The notes beneath the pieces were generated by a model. It worked only from the letters and a program-made list of their open reading frames with translations. It was not told the origin of the DNA and made no database searches. Shown here piece by piece: positions 5,994 to 26,209 of a DNA stretch of 64,000 nucleotides. Each line of letters opens with the position of its first letter. Within the stretch, counting starts at the first letter, position 1. This stretch comes from Fidelibacterota bacterium (lineage in GTDB: Bacteria > Pseudomonadota > Alphaproteobacteria > Rhodospirillales > Rhodospirillaceae). Location: the NCBI GenBank assembly GCA_947476895.1, contig CANJRX010000001.1:434865-498864 (forward strand), written 5' to 3'. A program made the translations under genes and the position numbers.

Positions 5994-6776
5994 ATGGTCG
6001 AGTTTTCACTCCCTAAGAATTCCAAGCCCACCAAAGGCAAGACGTATCCTGCGCCAGCAGGTGCGAAGAACGTCAAGCGCTTTGACATCTACCGTTATGA
6101 CCCCGACTCCGGCGCCAATCCGCGTATCGATAGCTACGACGTTGATATGGACACCTGCGGTCCCATGGTCCTCGACGCTCTTCTAAAGATCAAAGACGAA
6201 ACCGATCAAACCCTCACGCTGCGACGCTCGTGCCGCGAAGGCATTTGCGGCTCGTGCTCCATGAACATCGACGGCGGAAATACGCTGGCGTGTTTGAAGC
6301 CCATCGATGAATGCAATGGCACCGTAAAGGTTTATCCGCTGCCGCATATGCCGGTGGTCAAAGACCTGGTGCCGGACCTCACGCATATCTACGCGCAGTA
6401 CGCGTCCATTGAGCCGTGGATGAAAAATGACACGCCGCCGCCGTCATCGGGCGAGCGTCTACAGTCGCCGGAAGAGCGCGAAAAGCTCGACGGGCTGTGG
6501 GAATGCATTTTGTGCTTCTGCTGTACCACCAGCTGCCCAAGCTATTGGTGGAATGGCGACCGCTATCTTGGCCCCGCAGTGCTTTTGCAGGCCGCGCGCT
6601 GGATCAACGATAGCCGCGACGAAGCCACCGGCGAACGCTTGGACGACCTCGAAGATCCGTTCAAGCTCTACCGCTGCCACACCATCATGAACTGCACCAA
6701 CACCTGCCCGAAGGGTTTGAACCCGGCCAAAGCAATTGCCGACATCAAGATGAAGATGGTCGAGCGCGCGGGATAA
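5994..6776 (+). CDS. sdhB: Succinate dehydrogenase iron-sulfur subunit
   Basis: SdhB transfers electrons from the flavin of SdhA through three iron-sulfur clusters to quinone. In 260 residues it carries the 2Fe-2S ligands in [13 protein letters not shown] with a downstream Cys in LAC, the 4Fe-4S motif [12 protein letters not shown] and the 3Fe-4S motif [14 protein letters not shown]. It is the last gene of the operon and is followed by a strong terminator shared with the convergent TPR gene. Confidence 0.98.
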
Positions 6777-7924: not shown

Positions 7925-8266
7925 TTATGGTTTTGCCACGCAACTGTAAAATACGCGCCGTGGTGCTACTGCCGTACAGGTCCACCGCTCCTCACGCTGA
8001 TATTGCGCAACCCGGCCGGTTTTAGCGCATTCCGACTCGGCCAGCTTTAACACCTGAGCCGTTGTTGCCGGGCTCTTGGAATAGCAAATCGCCACCATAT
8101 CGGCGGTAGATGTGCCCACCGGCTCGTTTTGACCGGCTTCACGGCGACTATCCACGTACGCAGCGCTTCCGCAGGCGCCAAGCAGGAGGGTTGTTGTCCC
8201 CAGGATCACGCCAATCACCCATTTGGGTGCCCTTTTGACCCCGAAAAGCCCTGTGCAGCGTACCAT
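7925..8266 (-). CDS. Small uncharacterised lipoprotein
   Basis: The protein has 113 residues with a basic N-terminus, a hydrophobic stretch and a lipobox LLLGAC, so it should be lipid-anchored after cleavage before that Cys. The mature part has further cysteines (AICYS, ESEC, WTC and YSC), an even-looking set that could form disulfides in the periplasm. I do not recognise the family. It precedes the TPR gene on the same strand by 64 bases and is divergent from the DHH phosphoesterase gene. Confidence 0.65.
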   Translation of the reverse strand: MVRCTGLFGVKRAPKWVIGVILGTTTLLLGACGSAAYVDSRREAGQNEPVGTSTADMVAICYSKSPATTAQVLKLAESECAKTGRVAQYQREERWTCTAVAPRRVFYSCVAKP

Positions 8267-8284
8267 TGACCATGTCCTTTGATG

Positions 8285-8293
8285 TTATCCACA
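8285..8293 (+). promoter_or_regulatory. Perfect DnaA-box sequence
   Basis: TTATCCACA matches the strict DnaA-binding consensus in the 137-base gap between divergent lipoprotein and DHH phosphoesterase genes. It is a single box, with no cluster or AT-rich element nearby, so it does not mark a replication origin. It could be a DnaA regulatory site or chance. Confidence 0.35.
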
Positions 8294-8403
8294 GGGTTGA
8301 ATCCCAGCCGGTGAATTCACTTTCCACCGATGGGGCGTTGTCTTAACCCCAAGTCCTGTTTATCTTTTTGCCCGAACGCACTTTTGTCGAGGGGAGTTTT
8401 TCG

Positions 8404-9333
8404 ATGTCCTCAGGGAAATACCGGCTCGTTACGCGCAGCGATTTTGATGGCCTTGTTTGCGCGGCTATCCTTAAGGAACTGAACATGATCGATGAGATCA
8501 AGTTCGTCCACCCGAAGGACATGCAAGACGGAGTGATTGAAATCACCAACCGCGATATCACGACCAACCTTCCTTTCGTGGAAGGCGTGCATCTTGCGTT
8601 CGACCACCATGAAAGCGAAACCATTCGTGTTGGCAAAAAAGACAATCACGTCATCGACAAGCACGCGCCCTCGGCGGCCCGTGTGGTCTATGACTATTAC
8701 GGCGGCAAAAAGAAGATCCCGCGCATTTCCGATGCGTTGATGGAAGCCGTCGACAAGGGCGACGCCGCCCAGTTTAACAAAGACGAAGTACTCAACCCGC
8801 AAGGGTGGGACCTTATGAACTTCATCATGGACGCGCGTACCGGCCTTGGCCGTTTCCGCGAATTCACGATCTCCAACTACCAACTCATGATGGAACTCAT
8901 CGACAAGTGCGTGCAGATGTCGGTGGAAGACATTCTGATGCTGCCCGATGTGGTCGAGCGTGTGGACCTTTACGTCGAGCACGAAACCAAAGCCAAAGAC
9001 CAGATCAAGCGTTGCACCACCGTGCACAAGAATCTCGTGATTCTCGATTTGCGCGATGAAGAAACCATCTGGGCTTGTAACCGCTTCCTGATTTACGCGC
9101 TGTATCCTGCCTCCAATATCTCGATCCACGTCATGTGGGGCCTGAAGAAGCAGAACACTGTGTTTGCCATCGGCAAGTCGATCTTCGACCGCTCCTCCAA
9201 GACCAATGTCGGCGAGCTGTGCTTGAAGTACGGCGGCGGCGGTCACCAGGCGGCGGGCACCTGTCAGGTTCCCAACGACATCGCCGAAAAGACGCTGAAA
9301 GACATCACCGAAAAGATCAACAAGGACGGCTAA
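8404..9333 (+). CDS. DHH-family phosphoesterase
   Basis: The start is the ATG with GAGGGGAG seven bases upstream, giving 309 residues; an in-frame TTG 36 bases earlier has no ribosome site. The N-terminal DHH domain shows the metal-binding pattern Asp13-x-Asp15 in SDFDGLVCA and DHHES at 67-71. The C-terminus has the DHHA1-type glycine motif GGGGHQAAGTC. Such enzymes hydrolyse phosphodiester bonds, for example in oligoribonucleotides or cyclic dinucleotides. Substrate cannot be decided here: it lacks the PAS and GGDEF domains of GdpP and resembles NrnA-like exopolyphosphatase/nanoRNase proteins only in general layout. It stands alone and is followed by a terminator. Confidence 0.85.
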   Translation: MSSGKYRLVTRSDFDGLVCAAILKELNMIDEIKFVHPKDMQDGVIEITNRDITTNLPFVEGVHLAFDHHESETIRVGKKDNHVIDKHAPSAARVVYDYYGGKKKIPRISDALMEAVDKGDAAQFNKDEVLNPQGWDLMNFIMDARTGLGRFREFTISNYQLMMELIDKCVQMSVEDILMLPDVVERVDLYVEHETKAKDQIKRCTTVHKNLVILDLRDEETIWACNRFLIYALYPASNISIHVMWGLKKQNTVFAIGKSIFDRSSKTNVGELCLKYGGGGHQAAGTCQVPNDIAEKTLKDITEKINKDG

Positions 9334-9357
9334 GCCGATACCTTGTCGGGCAATGAT

Positions 9358-9392
9358 GTGCCGCCTCTGGTTTTGGAGGCGGCACTTTTGTT
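9358..9392 (+). terminator. Intrinsic terminator after the DHH phosphoesterase
   Basis: A 10-bp perfect stem GTGCCGCCTC / GAGGCGGCAC with an 8-base loop is followed by TTTTGTTT. It starts 25 bases after the stop codon. Confidence 0.85.
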
Positions 9393-9419
9393 TGTGAAGC
9401 CCATTTTCTATAAAACGTC

Positions 9420-10547
9420 ATGACTGATACGCCGCTACAACGTTATCGCGCGCTGGTCGCCGCCGGAGAGCTGAAAAGCGATCCGGCTCAAGAGTTGGCG
9501 GCGGAAAAGCTTTCAAGCTTGGCCAATGCCCTGAAGGGCTATTCTCCCAAAAGCGGCAAGCGCGGCTGGATGGATCGCTTCGGCTTAAAGGCGCGCGACG
9601 AAGCGCCCCCACCGCAAGGCCTGTACCTTTACGGCGGCGTCGGGCGCGGCAAGTCCATGCTCATGAATATGTTCTTCGATACCGCGCCGATTACGGCCAA
9701 AGAGCGCGTGCACTTCCACGCTTTCATGCGTGACATTCATCTGGAAATTCATCGCCGCCGCCAGATGCCGATGTATGCGGACGAGGGCGATCCCATTCCC
9801 GGCATGGCGGACGGCATCGCCGACAATACGACGTTGCTCTGCCTCGATGAGTTGGAAGTGCGCGACATCGCCGACGCCATGGTGGTCGGGCGCCTGTTTC
9901 AAAAACTCTTCGACCGCGGCGTGGTGGTTGTGACGACCTCTAATCGTCACCCCGATGATTTATATAAACACGGCCTGCAACGTGACCGCTTTGTGCCGTT
10001 CATCGGCATCATCAAAGAAAAGCTCGACGTGCTGGCGCTGGAAGCTGCGCAGGATTATCGCTTGGGCCGCTTGGCGGGGCAGGCGGTTTATTACACACCA
10101 TTGGGCCTTGCGGCAGACACCGCGCTCGATGCGGCTTGGGCGCGCCTGACCGATGATGCGCCGTTGAAACCGGACTATGTGCAAATGCCCGGACGGCGCA
10201 TTGCTGTGCCGGCGGCAGCCCACCAAGTGGCGCGCTTTACCTTCAGCGATTTGTGCGAGCAGCCTTTAGGGCCCAGCGATTATCTTGCCATCGCCGCGCA
10301 GTTCTCGACGGTGATCCTCAAGGATATTCCGCAGATGAACGAAGACAAAAAAGATTCCGCGCGGCGTTTTGTGACTTTGATTGATGCGCTTTACGAACAC
10401 CGCACGGCGCTGGTGTGTTCAGCGGCGGCTCTGCCCGACCAGCTTTACGTCGGGCGCGAAGGCAGCTTCGAATTTAACCGCACGGCGTCACGCCTGATTG
10501 AAATGCAGGCTGCTGATTACATCAAGCAGCGACACGTAGAAGCTTAG
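9420..10547 (+). CDS. zapE: Cell division ATPase ZapE (AFG1-like)
   Basis: The 375-residue protein is an AAA-type ATPase of the AFG1/ZapE family; in E. coli ZapE associates with the constriction ring. The Walker A motif is GGVGRGKS at about 72-79 within GLYLYGG, followed by the family segment HFHAFMRDIH, the Walker B LCLDELEV and the sensor-like VVTTSNRHPDDLY. Length fits bacterial ZapE. Its TAG stop overlaps the stop of the convergent ChaN-like gene by four bases. Confidence 0.9.
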   Translation: MTDTPLQRYRALVAAGELKSDPAQELAAEKLSSLANALKGYSPKSGKRGWMDRFGLKARDEAPPPQGLYLYGGVGRGKSMLMNMFFDTAPITAKERVHFHAFMRDIHLEIHRRRQMPMYADEGDPIPGMADGIADNTTLLCLDELEVRDIADAMVVGRLFQKLFDRGVVVVTTSNRHPDDLYKHGLQRDRFVPFIGIIKEKLDVLALEAAQDYRLGRLAGQAVYYTPLGLAADTALDAAWARLTDDAPLKPDYVQMPGRRIAVPAAAHQVARFTFSDLCEQPLGPSDYLAIAAQFSTVILKDIPQMNEDKKDSARRFVTLIDALYEHRTALVCSAAALPDQLYVGREGSFEFNRTASRLIEMQAADYIKQRHVEA

Positions 10548-11584
10548 AGCGTGCACTGATTCCGATCGCGGGTTTCCATCTGCTTCTTGATCGCGGCGCT
10601 CATTTCCTCGTCGCTGGCGTAGAAGTCCGGCAATGGGCGCAGCATCAAAATAAACGTGCCGGTCTTAGCGAGCTTTGGTGAGACATCCAGACGGTTGAGA
10701 TCATCTGGAAACTCGGGGTTTACCACCGCGATTTTCAAGTTCGGCATGCGCAGTTTCAGGCGCTCAACGGTTCCCAAAAATGACTCGGCATGGAACGAAC
10801 CGGTAAGGTGAACGACTTTGCGCCCGGGGTTCTTCTGTAAATGCAGCGCGATGGATTCCGCCATAGTGTCGTCGCGCGTCACTTGTGCAGCAAAGCTGCG
10901 CAAAGCCGTGTCGCTGGGTGGCTTCCGCTCAACAGGTTTTTCTTTGGACTCATCACCGCCGTGGCCGGCATCCCCGCCGGCGAAACCTAGGAACTTATCT
11001 TTATAAGCGCCATCGTTCGTATTGATCTCGGCTGCGGCCCAGGCGCGTTGTTCGGGCTTCAGGCGCGCGAGCATGCCCGCACCTTCTCGGCCTACACAGC
11101 GCACGACGTCTTCGGGCGCATTGGCGGCAATCACCGGCAGCTTGTGATCTTTGGCGTATTCCACCAAGGGCCGATAGCTCGTGGTGTAGTTGGCCCAAGC
11201 GCGGGCTTTGCTCGCGAACGGCGTTTCACCGATTTTTCCGGCAAGATAATCATCAAGCGTCGGCTGCACATCGCGCTCGAACTGCTCGAGAGATAAACTC
11301 AAGGCCGGCGCGCGTTCGTGGATGTCGCGGAACAACGCCATCTCTGCCAGATGATTGCCGGGATGCTGATGCGCTTCGCCGATAAAGATCACGTCATAAC
11401 CGGCGAGAATCTGTGCGGCGTTCCCGACAGACACACGCTGAGGCGTGTGGGCGCCAGCATCAGTACGAATCAAAACAAAGGATGTGAGATCAGGCAGCGA
11501 CGCGCCGCTCCCATTGCCGGACGGCATCGTGGCGCAAGACGTCAGCAGAGCCGCAACAACCAAACCAGCCAACCGGCGCTTCAT
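10544..11584 (-). CDS. ChaN-family lipoprotein
   Basis: The protein is 346 residues from the chosen ATG; GTG two codons upstream is an alternative, and AAGGGA lies 9 bases before the ATG. The N-terminus is a lipoprotein signal with lipobox LLTSC. The ChaN (haem-binding, erythromycin-esterase-like fold) family marks are VIFIGEAHQHPGNH near 90, SLEQFERDVQ, VIAANAPEDVVR and VVHLTGSFHAES near 260. ChaN proteins bind haem or are linked to iron uptake in some bacteria, but no iron gene is nearby. It lies 15 bases downstream of the six-cysteine/LytM gene on the same strand, so co-transcription is likely. Confidence 0.85.
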   Translation of the reverse strand: MKRRLAGLVVAALLTSCATMPSGNGSGASLPDLTSFVLIRTDAGAHTPQRVSVGNAAQILAGYDVIFIGEAHQHPGNHLAEMALFRDIHERAPALSLSLEQFERDVQPTLDDYLAGKIGETPFASKARAWANYTTSYRPLVEYAKDHKLPVIAANAPEDVVRCVGREGAGMLARLKPEQRAWAAAEINTNDGAYKDKFLGFAGGDAGHGGDESKEKPVERKPPSDTALRSFAAQVTRDDTMAESIALHLQKNPGRKVVHLTGSFHAESFLGTVERLKLRMPNLKIAVVNPEFPDDLNRLDVSPKLAKTGTFILMLRPLPDFYASDEEMSAAIKKQMETRDRNQCTL

Positions 11585-11599
11585 GCTCACGTGTCCCTT

Positions 11600-12694
11600 C
11601 TACTGCGCCCGGCGTTCGCGCATGACGGTGCGCGGATCGATCTGATTGCCGTCCCGCAGCAACTCAAGATGTATAAAGCGCCCAGCGCCCGGATGCTCGC
11701 TTTCAACCCACTGCGGTTTACCGAGCGTCACCGCGGCCTCCACGCGTTGGCCGGCCACTGCGCCGGTGCGATCGACGAGTGCGAACTTCGCCATCATGTT
11801 GGACTGGCGATCTTCGCCCTGTAACACCACCCAATCATAAAGCGGCACGTCGGGATATTTCAGGCTGCGTCTGATGATCATGCCGGCAAACGGTGCGGCC
11901 ACAGGCTGATTGGGCAAGCCCATCATGATCTCGAGACCCGGGTGAGGGTAGTCGTCGCGCCCCGGCTCGCGCGGCGAGGCCCAAACCTGTTTGACGTCCT
12001 TGGCGAAGACATCGCGTTCGCGCAGATTTTTCACGAATAGGCGACAGGGTCCCCAGGCCGCCGTACGGAATTTGCGCTCGCAAGCCGCCGCACGCGACGA
12101 CGACCAGGCGATGATGTGCCAGCCACCCGATTTTTCTTGGCCCGCCGTTTCGCGAAAGAACGCCGACATCCGGTACACCAAGCCGCTGACGTAAGGCTCG
12201 GGGATATCGACAATCAATTCGTAAGCGCCGCTGGTGTAGGCGGGAATCTGGTCATAAGCCGGCGCGCCGCTGGTTTGCGGACGCACGGTCTGAAACCGCG
12301 CGGCTGGAATCATCCCGCCATCATATATGTGTAGCGCGAAGGCCTCGGGCATCAGGCGCTCGAAGGGAAGCGTCCACGGTTCTTTTAAAACGTCGGTATC
12401 TAAAGTATCCGGACCGGGGTAGCGCTCAGGGATGTGCTCGAAACCCACCTGTGTGCAAAGCTGGGGCGCATCGTAAAGCACGCAGGCCAAATAGGTTTTG
12501 AGCGCGCAAAGGGGCGTTGTACCTGGCCCGCCGCACGGCTGGGCCAGGTCGGACGCAGAACTTTCGGCCGCATCGCCAGCCGGACGAGTCCACAAACTGG
12601 AGTCGGAAACGCCGGCCGCGGCCGCGTTGCCAGCGGCAAAAAGCCCAAGAAAGAGGGCGGTAATGGCGGCTTTCAGCCCGCTAGCCACACGCAT
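11600..12694 (-). CDS. Secreted six-cysteine domain protein with degenerate LytM/M23-like C-terminus
   Basis: The protein has 364 residues and a signal peptide ending GNAAAA near residue 27. Residues about 50-222 carry six cysteines (54, 63, 71, 80, 205, 217), a PWTL motif at 106-109 and a GAYELIV segment. The same order of cysteines and motifs is seen in the gene at 24712-25317, so this is a shared domain. Residues about 250-355 resemble an M23/LytM peptidase core (HPGLEI at 251, PVAAPFAGMI, QRVEAAVTLG, FIHLELLRDG at 340), but the usual zinc ligands are incomplete: Glu255 stands where Asp is expected and Phe340 where the first His of HxH is expected. A non-catalytic, peptidoglycan-associated role is inferred. 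It is upstream of the ChaN-like gene. Confidence 0.7.
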   Translation of the reverse strand: MRVASGLKAAITALFLGLFAAGNAAAAGVSDSSLWTRPAGDAAESSASDLAQPCGGPGTTPLCALKTYLACVLYDAPQLCTQVGFEHIPERYPGPDTLDTDVLKEPWTLPFERLMPEAFALHIYDGGMIPAARFQTVRPQTSGAPAYDQIPAYTSGAYELIVDIPEPYVSGLVYRMSAFFRETAGQEKSGGWHIIAWSSSRAAACERKFRTAAWGPCRLFVKNLRERDVFAKDVKQVWASPREPGRDDYPHPGLEIMMGLPNQPVAAPFAGMIIRRSLKYPDVPLYDWVVLQGEDRQSNMMAKFALVDRTGAVAGQRVEAAVTLGKPQWVESEHPGAGRFIHLELLRDGNQIDPRTVMRERRAQ

Positions 12695-24711: not shown

Positions 24712-25317
24712 TTACCAGGCGGCTACACCCGGCACGGCATAGCGACAGGCCAACGAACCGAGCTTGCGTTTGCCGCAGATGCTGATGAGCTTGCCGTCGT
24801 CGCTCCAGCGCGCGAAGCCTGTCGCGGTCCACACATCTTTTTTCTCGGCAAGAAACACGCTCTGGCGTTCTTCTTTACCGGCGGCATTGACCATTTTGAT
24901 CATCAGCTCAAAGGTGCCGGTCAGGCCGCGGCGGCTTCCCGGCACGCCTTTCAGGCGCGCGGGCGTCACTTCGCGCAAACCCTCGATCTGCCAAACGCTG
25001 TAGGTCGGGTGGGTGACATGCAGAAGCTGATTCCAGCTCAGCGTCCACGGCTTGGTCCAGACTTCGCCCTCAGCCGTGCCGTCGCTCTTATGCTGGGTGC
25101 CGTCGGCCTGCACATTGAGGCCCACGATTTTGCAGACGGCGATGGATTTCTCTGAACACACCATGAAAGTCTTGGCCGCGCACTCCGGGCTTTCGCCGGA
25201 CGAGTCGCAAGCCTTCTCGGTGTCGGGATCGGGATAGGCCGGGAGTTCAGCCGCCTTCAAAGGCATAGCGACCAGCGCCAGAAGGCCTAACCCAACAATC
25301 ACGCGCAACCGGCTCAT
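24712..25317 (-). CDS. Secreted six-cysteine domain protein
   Basis: The protein has 201 residues with a signal peptide ending PLKAAE near 23. The mature part carries six cysteines (37, 46, 54, 62, 181, 191), a KPWTL motif at 89-93 and a GTFELMI segment. The order and spacing match the N-terminal domain of the 11600-12694 product: C-x8-C-x7-C-x7/8-C-x2-VG, then PWTL, then G-[TA]-[FY]-EL, then C-x-[RK]-[KR]-...-CR. I do not recognise a named family. Disulfide-rich periplasmic folding is inferred. It converges with the GT2 gene and diverges from the rhomboid gene. Confidence 0.7.
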   Translation of the reverse strand: MSRLRVIVGLGLLALVAMPLKAAELPAYPDPDTEKACDSSGESPECAAKTFMVCSEKSIAVCKIVGLNVQADGTQHKSDGTAEGEVWTKPWTLSWNQLLHVTHPTYSVWQIEGLREVTPARLKGVPGSRRGLTGTFELMIKMVNAAGKEERQSVFLAEKKDVWTATGFARWSDDGKLISICGKRKLGSLACRYAVPGVAAW

Positions 25318-25432: not shown

Positions 25433-26209
25433 ATGTTCCTGCCCATCCGCGACGACAATCCGCATACCCTCACACCTTACGTGAATTATGGGCTGATTAT
25501 CGCCTGTGCCGCGGCGTTTTTGTGGCAATTGTCGCTGGGTGAGGGCGGCGATGCAGCTGTGGCCACGTTCGGCCTTACGCCCGGCCAGCTTTTCGGCACT
25601 GTTACACCGGAGATGGGGTCGCCGACGGTACCGGCCATCCTCACGGTTTTCACCTCCATGTTCCTCCATGGCGGTTGGATGCATTTCCTGGGGAATATGC
25701 TCTACCTCTGGATTTTCGGCGACAATATCGAAGCGTCGCTGGGCCACAAACGCTATCTGGTGTTCTACCTTGTGTGCGGTATCGCCGCGGCCCTGGCCCA
25801 ATGTTTGTCCGCGCCCACGTCTGATGTGCCGATGATCGGAGCGTCCGGGGCCATCGCAGGCGTTCTTGGTGCGTATCTGGTTTTGCACCCGCGCTCGAAT
25901 ATCAAAGTCTTCGTTTTCATGATCATCATTACGACGATCAATGTGCCGGCTTTCATCGTGCTGGGACTGTGGTTTGGCGGGCAGTTACTAAGCTCAGCCG
26001 CCGCTGATCCATCCGCGCCCGGCGTGGCGTTCATGGCCCATATCGGCGGATTTGTTGCCGGCGCGGTGCTGGTGTTTTTGTTCAAGCAACGCGGCGTGCG
26101 CGTTTTGTCTCCGCCGCAAAGCAAAGCCTTCGCGGTGGAGCGCAGGCCTTACCGGCGCGGCTCTGTGCCCGACGCTGGCGGACGCACTACACGCGGGCCT
26201 TGGAGCTAA
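25433..26209 (+). CDS. Rhomboid family intramembrane serine protease
   Basis: The 258-residue protein has six or so hydrophobic segments and the rhomboid catalytic dyad: Ser138 in GASGAIAG and His203 in AHIGGFVAG. The HGGWMHFLGNMLYLWIFGDN segment (79-98) carries the conserved His/Asn of the family. Rhomboids cut transmembrane helices. The C-terminal 45 residues are basic and cytoplasmic. The stop overlaps the stop of convergent xerC. The start has only a weak ribosome site (GAG) upstream. Confidence 0.92.
   Translation: MFLPIRDDNPHTLTPYVNYGLIIACAAAFLWQLSLGEGGDAAVATFGLTPGQLFGTVTPEMGSPTVPAILTVFTSMFLHGGWMHFLGNMLYLWIFGDNIEASLGHKRYLVFYLVCGIAAALAQCLSAPTSDVPMIGASGAIAGVLGAYLVLHPRSNIKVFVFMIIITTINVPAFIVLGLWFGGQLLSSAAADPSAPGVAFMAHIGGFVAGAVLVFLFKQRGVRVLSPPQSKAFAVERRPYRRGSVPDAGGRTTRGPWS

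What the first reader, a model, noticed from the sequence alone, without database searches (positions are those of the whole stretch)
11600..12694. New six-cysteine secreted domain shared by two genes 12 kb apart
The products at 11600-12694 and 24712-25317 share C-x8-C-x7-C-x7/8-C-x2-VG, a PWTL motif, a G-x-[FY]-EL motif and a final C-x-[RK]-[KR]...CR, with cysteines 54/63/71/80/205/217 versus 37/46/54/62/181/191. Both have signal peptides. The six matched cysteines suggest three conserved disulfides. I know no named domain with this pattern. One copy stands alone and the other is fused to a LytM-like domain, implying an envelope function.
Basis: partly seen in the sequence, partly recalled or inferred. 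Interest (0 to 1): 0.6.

Follow-up and report, generated by a model that had tools for sequence, protein, structure and literature searches.

The report
Orphan cell-wall-toxin immunity-like domain pair
Two secreted proteins in this bacterium share an undescribed cysteine-stapled domain whose relatives elsewhere sit next to swappable cell-wall-degrading toxins, so the domain is most likely a shield against such enzymes, and in one of the two it is fused to a dead copy of such a toxin.

Summary
The products at 11600-12694 (A) and 24712-25317 (B) are homologous over a secreted domain (BLASTP E 2e-7). All six cysteines are invariant in 32 members from one family of Alphaproteobacteria. No Pfam, NCBIfam, PHROG, PADLOC or PDB sequence model matches it. 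The wider family keeps only the four-Cys hairpin C-x8-C-x7-C-x7/8-C.

Relatives outside the core loci explain the domain. In 15 of about 21 independent loci the adjacent gene (in one case next but one) encodes a signal-less peptidoglycan hydrolase: M23, muramidase-like, T4-type lysozyme or BPSL0067. Two loci of G021 share an 85%-identical hydrolase N-terminus but carry different toxin domains. In G494 the hydrolases are 98% identical N-terminally and strongly divergent C-terminally, and the Cys proteins diverge in parallel. This is the signature of polymorphic toxin-immunity pairs. T6SS VipA is absent from 15 of 16 and VirB4 from 16 of 16 of these genomes.

A's C-terminal M23 domain falls with the toxin-linked M23 clade, not housekeeping M23 (100/99). 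It lost catalytic histidines, yet is more conserved (73%) than the Cys domain (62%).

Best reading: A and B are orphan immunity-like inhibitors of cell-wall hydrolases; A is fused to a dead toxin domain. Inhibition is inferred; no confident fold was obtained.

The parts
11600..12694 (-). Gene A, 364 aa: signal peptide, six-Cys domain, degenerate M23 domain
   Evidence: orthologues in 11 genomes of the genus including this one
12617..12694 (-). Predicted signal peptide of A (residues 1-26, ...GNAAA|A)
   Evidence: by eye; not run through a predictor
12023..12550 (-). Six-Cys domain of A (residues 49-224)
11612..11953 (-). Degenerate M23/LytM domain of A (residues 248-361): H251, E255, A305, F340, H342 at the positions of the M23 motif
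24712..25317 (-). Gene B, 201 aa: signal peptide and stand-alone six-Cys domain
   Evidence: 14 B-type sequences including this one
25252..25317 (-). Predicted signal peptide of B (residues 1-22)
   Evidence: by eye
24715..25224 (-). Six-Cys domain of B (residues 32-201)
10544..11590 (-). ChaN-type haem-binding gene, 9 bases downstream of A on the same strand, probable operon partner; order A-(A2)-ChaN kept in the genus
   Evidence: Pfam Cofac_haem_bdg 190 bits; synteny
25433..26209 (+). Rhomboid-family gene, divergent neighbour of B in all 14 B-type loci (context only)
   Evidence: Pfam Rhomboid 126 bits; synteny

Best explanation
The domain is a periplasmic immunity-type inhibitor of peptidoglycan hydrolases. 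Relatives in other genera are the secreted partners of polymorphic toxins: a signal-less protein with a conserved N-terminus carries one of several cell-wall-cutting C-terminal domains (M23 endopeptidase, GH108-like muramidase, T4-type lysozyme, BPSL0067), and the adjacent Cys-domain gene is exported and would bind and block the hydrolase where it acts. Specificity would lie in the part after the four-Cys hairpin, which varies together with the toxin domain. In this genus A and B are fixed chromosomal copies without a toxin beside them (orphans). A additionally carries a catalytically dead toxin-type M23 domain, probably a binding module or decoy. Shown: homology, export-type N-termini (by eye), pairing, co-diversification, loss of the M23 site under strong conservation. 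Inferred: inhibition, the decoy role, and that A and B still act on hydrolases.
For: Profile of A/B-type domains vs remote members: hhalign probability 97.6, E 2.7e-12. Remote members were found by domain profile alone; 15 of about 21 independent loci are paired with a hydrolase gene. Of these, 7 are M23, against about 6 M23 genes per genome; P(>=7 of 16) about 5e-14 with an assumed ~3,500 genes. Polymorphism: G021 partners share 157 aa at 85% identity with M23 vs BPSL0067 C-termini; G494 partners 98% identical for 150 columns then 20-45%, Cys proteins 98/94% for 100 columns then 20-35%. Overlapping toxin/partner reading frames (G047, G408, G232) and a tandem array of Cys proteins behind one M23 gene (G408 C10). 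The partner hydrolases show no signal peptide by eye, the Cys proteins do. A's M23 groups with toxin-linked M23, split from housekeeping M23 100/99. A second Cys-domain plus dead-M23 fusion lies directly behind an M23 toxin gene in G408. Precedent: XAC2609/XAC2610, a signal-less lysozyme toxin with a periplasmic inhibitor (PMC10933484).
Against: No binding or protection was tested. A and B have no toxin gene beside them, and stable synteny with high conservation could mean a housekeeping role. Some relatives are unpaired (G115; the ABC-transporter locus of G275/G367/G444; G186/G454 C8). In G021 the Cys protein beside a BPSL0067 toxin is closer to that of an M23 locus in G024, so partner specificity is loose, or that copy is a leftover. 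The toxin-type M23 also occurs without a Cys partner (g122 locus, G354 phage module). No secretion system for the toxins was identified, and no confident structure exists.
Confidence: 0.62

Rival explanations
1. A is a regulator of the cell's own envelope enzymes: like EnvC or NlpD, its degenerate LytM domain binds and activates or tethers amidases, the six-Cys domain being an accessory; B is a related envelope factor. The pairing in other genera would reflect a general hydrolase-cofactor role rather than immunity.
For: The dead M23 domain of A is more conserved than the rest (73% vs 62%), A and B are core genes in fixed synteny, and catalytically dead LytM domains are known activators (general knowledge).
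Against: A's M23 domain belongs to the toxin-linked clade, not with housekeeping M23 (100/99). Polymorphic N-termini and co-diversifying partners fit toxin-immunity, not a housekeeping cofactor. A has no other Pfam domain such as LysM.
Confidence: 0.2
2. The Cys proteins are prophage lysis or superinfection-exclusion factors that restrain virion or lysis hydrolases; A and B are domesticated phage genes.
For: Phage-like structural genes (by eye) lie around the pair in G008, G232, G019 and one G494 locus; the M23 clade also occurs in a phage module (G354) and matches phage internal proteins in the PDB.
Against: No match in 50,697 phage records, in PHROGs or in viral contigs. Many pairs lie as two-gene cassettes between housekeeping genes, e.g. 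between leuD and leuB in G024. Polymorphic toxin N-termini are not expected for a lysis gene.
Confidence: 0.13
3. The six-Cys domain is an ordinary structural or ligand-binding envelope domain, and its closeness to hydrolase genes is incidental.
For: Unpaired copies exist, including A, B and a third core paralogue beside ygfZ-like genes.
Against: Pairing far exceeds background, recurs with four hydrolase types in two bacterial classes, and co-diversifies.
Confidence: 0.05

Closest known systems
X-Tfe XAC2609 / X-Tfi XAC2610 (Xanthomonas citri lysozyme toxin and periplasmic inhibitor, PMC10933484)
   Same: Signal-less peptidoglycan hydrolase encoded with a signal-peptide (lipo)protein that blocks it in the periplasm; the G047 partner also looks like a lipoprotein.
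   Different: XAC2610 is a beta-propeller whose toxin is delivered by an X-T4SS; the domain here has a four-Cys hairpin and matches no PDB chain by profile, and no VirB4 was found in 16 genomes.
T6SS effector-immunity pairs such as Tse1/Tsi1
   Same: Cell-wall-cutting toxin with a periplasmic inhibitor.
   Different: VipA absent from 15 of 16 genomes carrying the pair or its orphans; no similarity of the Cys domain to any family model searched.
MuF polymorphic toxins of temperate phages (PMC5576092)
   Same: Toxins with variable C-termini encoded among phage structural genes, as at G008, G232 and one G494 locus.
   Different: No MuF domain was reported for the partners by Pfam; MuF toxins are reported from Firmicutes.
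Degenerate LytM factors (EnvC, NlpD)
   Same: Secreted M23 domain lacking catalytic residues.
   Different: A's M23 domain lies in a different M23 clade from the housekeeping M23 sampled and is fused to the Cys domain.

Membership tests
Polymorphic toxin-immunity system (family as a whole) | Toxins share an N-terminal region and carry interchangeable C-terminal toxin domains | tested here: met
   G021 pair 85% over 157 aa with M23 vs BPSL0067 C-termini; G494 98% then 20-45%
Polymorphic toxin-immunity system (family as a whole) | Immunity gene next to the toxin gene and diversifying with it | tested here: met
   15 of ~21 independent loci; parallel divergence in G494
Polymorphic toxin-immunity system (A and B of the window) | Toxin gene adjacent | tested here: not met
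   neighbours are ChaN, mdh, a glycosyltransferase and a rhomboid gene; hence called orphans
Polymorphic toxin-immunity system | Immunity protein neutralises the toxin | not testable with these tools
   needs co-expression or a binding assay
Peptidase family M23 (A, C-terminal domain) | Profile match over the curated cut-off | tested here: inconclusive
   A 17.6 bits, orthologues up to 26.6, tandem paralogue 42.9; cut-off 28.7
Peptidase family M23 (A, C-terminal domain) | Zinc ligands and catalytic histidines HxxxD ... H ... HxH | tested here: not met
   D is E in 10 of 12, central H is A in 12 of 12, first H of HxH lost in 12 of 12, second H kept in 12 of 12
T6SS effector-immunity | T6SS in the genome | tested here: not met
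   VipA in 1 of 16 genomes
X-T4SS Tfe/Tfi | VirB4-type T4SS in the genome | tested here: not met
   PF03135 in 0 of 16
EnvC/NlpD-type LytM activator (A) | Activates a cell-wall amidase | not testable with these tools
   sequence only shows a dead M23 domain outside the housekeeping clade
NTF2-like superfamily (considered for the fold) | Helical hairpin packed on a curved beta-sheet | tested here: inconclusive

The most novel reading that the evidence does not exclude
A new superfamily of disulfide-stapled periplasmic immunity proteins protects Alphaproteobacteria and relatives from a polymorphic, phage-linked set of cell-wall toxins that use neither T6SS nor VirB4-type T4SS. Some members, such as A, arose by capture of a dead toxin domain and serve as genome-fixed, broad 'vaccines' in lineages that no longer make the toxin.
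Probability: 0.3. Interest if true: 0.78.

Novelty: new variant of a known kind. Interest (0 to 1): 0.62.

Why it matters
If true, it defines an immunity family invisible to Pfam, NCBIfam, PHROGs and PADLOC, and names a set of polymorphic cell-wall toxins without a known delivery machine. It also offers a test case for how immunity genes become fixed core genes and how a dead toxin domain is kept as part of a protective protein. The pairs are small and could be tested in a laboratory strain at once.

Tried and rejected
Genome contigs pattern scan: 33 hits where about 30 were expected by my own estimate of chance, scattered over unrelated phyla by title; taken as noise, so organism names were not obtained. 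Profile A1 had no stretch conserved enough for the search for related loci. Viral-contig scans with A- and B-type alignments found no relative. T6SS and VirB4 delivery were tested and not supported. The AU test of A plus housekeeping M23 against the toxin-linked rows was uninformative, because it allows A between the two groups. The reverse search with the toxin-type M23 profile showed that the M23 clade is not always paired, so pairing is a property of the Cys domain more than of the M23 clade. Weak hits in G200 and G007 were not counted. The neighbour of the G454 C86 genes is masked in the data and was left alone.

Full report
Observation. The two ORFs exist as described on the minus strand. 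A (11600-12694, 364 aa) and B (24712-25317, 201 aa) align by BLASTP with E 2e-7 over the first four cysteines, PWTL and the G-x-[FY]-EL motif. In the window's own genome these are the only two copies found. Searching 73 genomes of the taxonomic family gave A-type and B-type orthologues through much of the genus plus further paralogues. So the similarity is real and far beyond chance. The claimed C-x-[RK]-[KR] motif is not conserved in A orthologues.

Domain identity. Neither the Cys domain nor B matches Pfam, NCBIfam, PHROGs or PADLOC, and profiles of it match no PDB chain even at E 10. A's C-terminal third is M23/LytM-like: 17.6 bits for A, 14-27 for three of four orthologues scanned (one had no match), 42.9 (over the cut-off of 28.7) for the tandem paralogue in G049.

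Synteny. A lies beside a ChaN-type gene (same strand, 9 bases downstream in the window; Pfam 190 bits) in every A locus, with mdh on the other side wherever the contig allows, and B lies opposite a rhomboid gene in all 14 B-type loci. The TCA-cycle cluster fills the 12 kb between them; the spacing recurs in the genus. G049 has A and a second A-type copy in one operon with ChaN. Both are therefore stable core genes.

The wider family. The A/B profile also hit, at E 1e-3 to 1e-6, secreted proteins in other genera and orders of Alphaproteobacteria. A second profile made from 14 such domains (A7) hits the A-type in return, at best E 6e-9, and the two profiles match with probability 97.6 and E 2.7e-12 over 125 columns, not just the hairpin. 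In the wider family the signature is C-x8-C-x2-[KE]-T-x3-C-x7/8-C and a late tryptophan; the last two cysteines vary. The family is found in about 3% of 385 sampled genomes of the class, and in one genome of another class (G494) among 398 of the phylum.

Genomic partners. The remote loci were read for their neighbours. Paired with a cell-wall hydrolase: G008, G021 C26, G024, G116, G232, G408 C8, G408 C10 (M23; Pfam over cut-off in G008, G021, G024, G408 C8, G232; G116 and G408 C10 recognised by motif and rows of profile A8); G047 C47 (Phage_lysozyme, 108.6 bits); G275, G444 C22, G378 (mutually homologous muramidase-like proteins; holin-associated muramidase model E 1e-4 and GH108 sub-threshold in G275); three loci of G494 (homologous to that muramidase-like group by profile, probability 98, E 1.6e-13); G021 C7 (BPSL0067, 94 bits over a cut-off of 27, with an STY0301-family gene between it and the Cys gene). 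Unpaired: G115, the orthologous ABC-transporter locus of G275/G367/G444, the three-domain protein of G186/G454, two contig-end prophage-like loci of G019, and G454 C86 (neighbour masked). That is 15 of about 21 independent loci. M23 genes number about 6 per genome; with an assumed ~3,500 genes, seven or more M23 neighbours in 16 loci has a probability of about 5e-14. Members were collected by domain profile without regard to neighbours.

Polymorphism and co-diversification. The two partner hydrolases of G021 are 85% identical over 157 N-terminal residues but end in M23 and in BPSL0067. The partners of G408 and G232 are related along their length. In G494, partner toxins are 98% identical over the first 150 alignment columns and 20-45% after; the convergent Cys proteins of the same two loci are 98/94% identical over the signal peptide and Cys hairpin and 20-40% after. 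This is the recombination pattern of polymorphic toxin and immunity genes (PMC3482391; MuF toxins, PMC5576092, give a phage-linked precedent). Gene overlap in G047, G408 and G232, convergent gene order elsewhere, and a tandem array of Cys proteins with an M23 remnant behind one M23 gene (G408 C10) fit the same reading. Convergent order with a separate promoter is also how pore-forming colicin immunity genes lie (general knowledge).

A's M23 domain. In a tree of 41 M23 domains the 20 housekeeping domains are separated from the 12 A-type and 9 Cys-linked domains by a branch with support 100/99. Caveats: long branches, and housekeeping rows are a sample. By BLASTP A's M23 domain is closest among the partners to G008's (E 1e-8). 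A-type domains lost the central histidine (A in 12 of 12) and the first histidine of HxH (12 of 12), and carry E for D in 10 of 12, yet keep the last histidine in 12 of 12. The partner M23 domains keep H, D and HxH, and most of them also lack the central histidine, so that loss alone does not mark A as dead; the loss of the first His of HxH does. The A domain is more conserved (mean pairwise identity 0.73) than the Cys domain (0.62) in 11 orthologues. It is therefore a maintained non-enzyme, as far as sequence can tell. G408 C8 also shows a Cys-domain protein fused to a dead M23 domain directly behind an M23 toxin gene, and G232 has a secreted M23 protein and a Cys protein as separate genes behind an M23 toxin gene. 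M23-like domain plus Cys domain thus recurs as a unit next to live toxins.

Mechanism. Shown: homology, pairing, polymorphism, co-diversification, loss of catalytic residues in A, export-type N-termini of the Cys proteins (by eye). Inferred: the Cys protein blocks the hydrolase in the periplasm, as X-Tfi XAC2610 blocks XAC2609 (PMC10933484). For A and B there is no toxin beside them, so the most likely role is orphan immunity against hydrolases of competitors or phages, with A's dead M23 domain as a binding or decoy module. I put about 0.75 on immunity for the family and about 0.5 for A and B themselves; 0.62 is for the combined statement. The main rival is an EnvC-like regulatory role.

Delivery. 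T6SS VipA was found in 1 of 16 relevant genomes and VirB4 in none. Phage-like structural genes flank several pairs, but the Cys domain is absent from phage and viral collections. Delivery is open.

Limits. An NTF2-like fold is my guess from the pattern of a helical hairpin followed by strands ending in W-x-[IV]-x2-W; it carries no weight in the argument. Genome names were not available for the relatives. Gene calls in relatives came from a simple ORF script, and phage-like genes there were recognised by eye. Literature was searched only in the open PubMed Central library; no description of this family was found there.

Noticed in passing
L134:7787-8308 (G021 C7): An STY0301-family gene lies between a BPSL0067-type toxin and a Cys-domain gene; BPSL0067/STY0301 may be a toxin-immunity pair in its own right, leaving the Cys gene as a leftover of an earlier M23 toxin.
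   Followed up: partly
L185:4656-10030 (G408 C10): Tandem array of at least four Cys-domain genes behind one M23 gene, with an M23 fragment (6195-6512) embedded in the array.
   Followed up: partly
L230-L233 (genus g122): A toxin-type M23 gene of about 190 aa sits between dusA-like and MmgE/PrpD-like genes in four genomes without a Cys partner.
   Followed up: no
alignment A8: The best PDB matches of the toxin-type M23 clade are animal LECT2 (E 5e-14) and a phage internal protein (9k2v), ahead of bacterial M23 enzymes.
   Followed up: no
L247:82-2098 and 8061-9975 (G494 C267): Next to the muramidase pairs are two paralogous 177-aa proteins and an alpha/beta hydrolase followed by small membrane proteins; these look like further toxin-immunity units.
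   Followed up: no
L146-L149: A third core paralogue of the six-Cys domain in the genus lies between ygfZ-like and aldo/keto reductase or ppdK-like genes.
   Followed up: partly
L186:4228-4935 (G454 C86): The gene beside two Cys-domain genes is masked with N in the held data; its visible N-terminus resembles that of other partner toxins. Left alone.
   Followed up: no
L040: The B orthologue of G060 carries a long proline/alanine-rich C-terminal extension.
   Followed up: no
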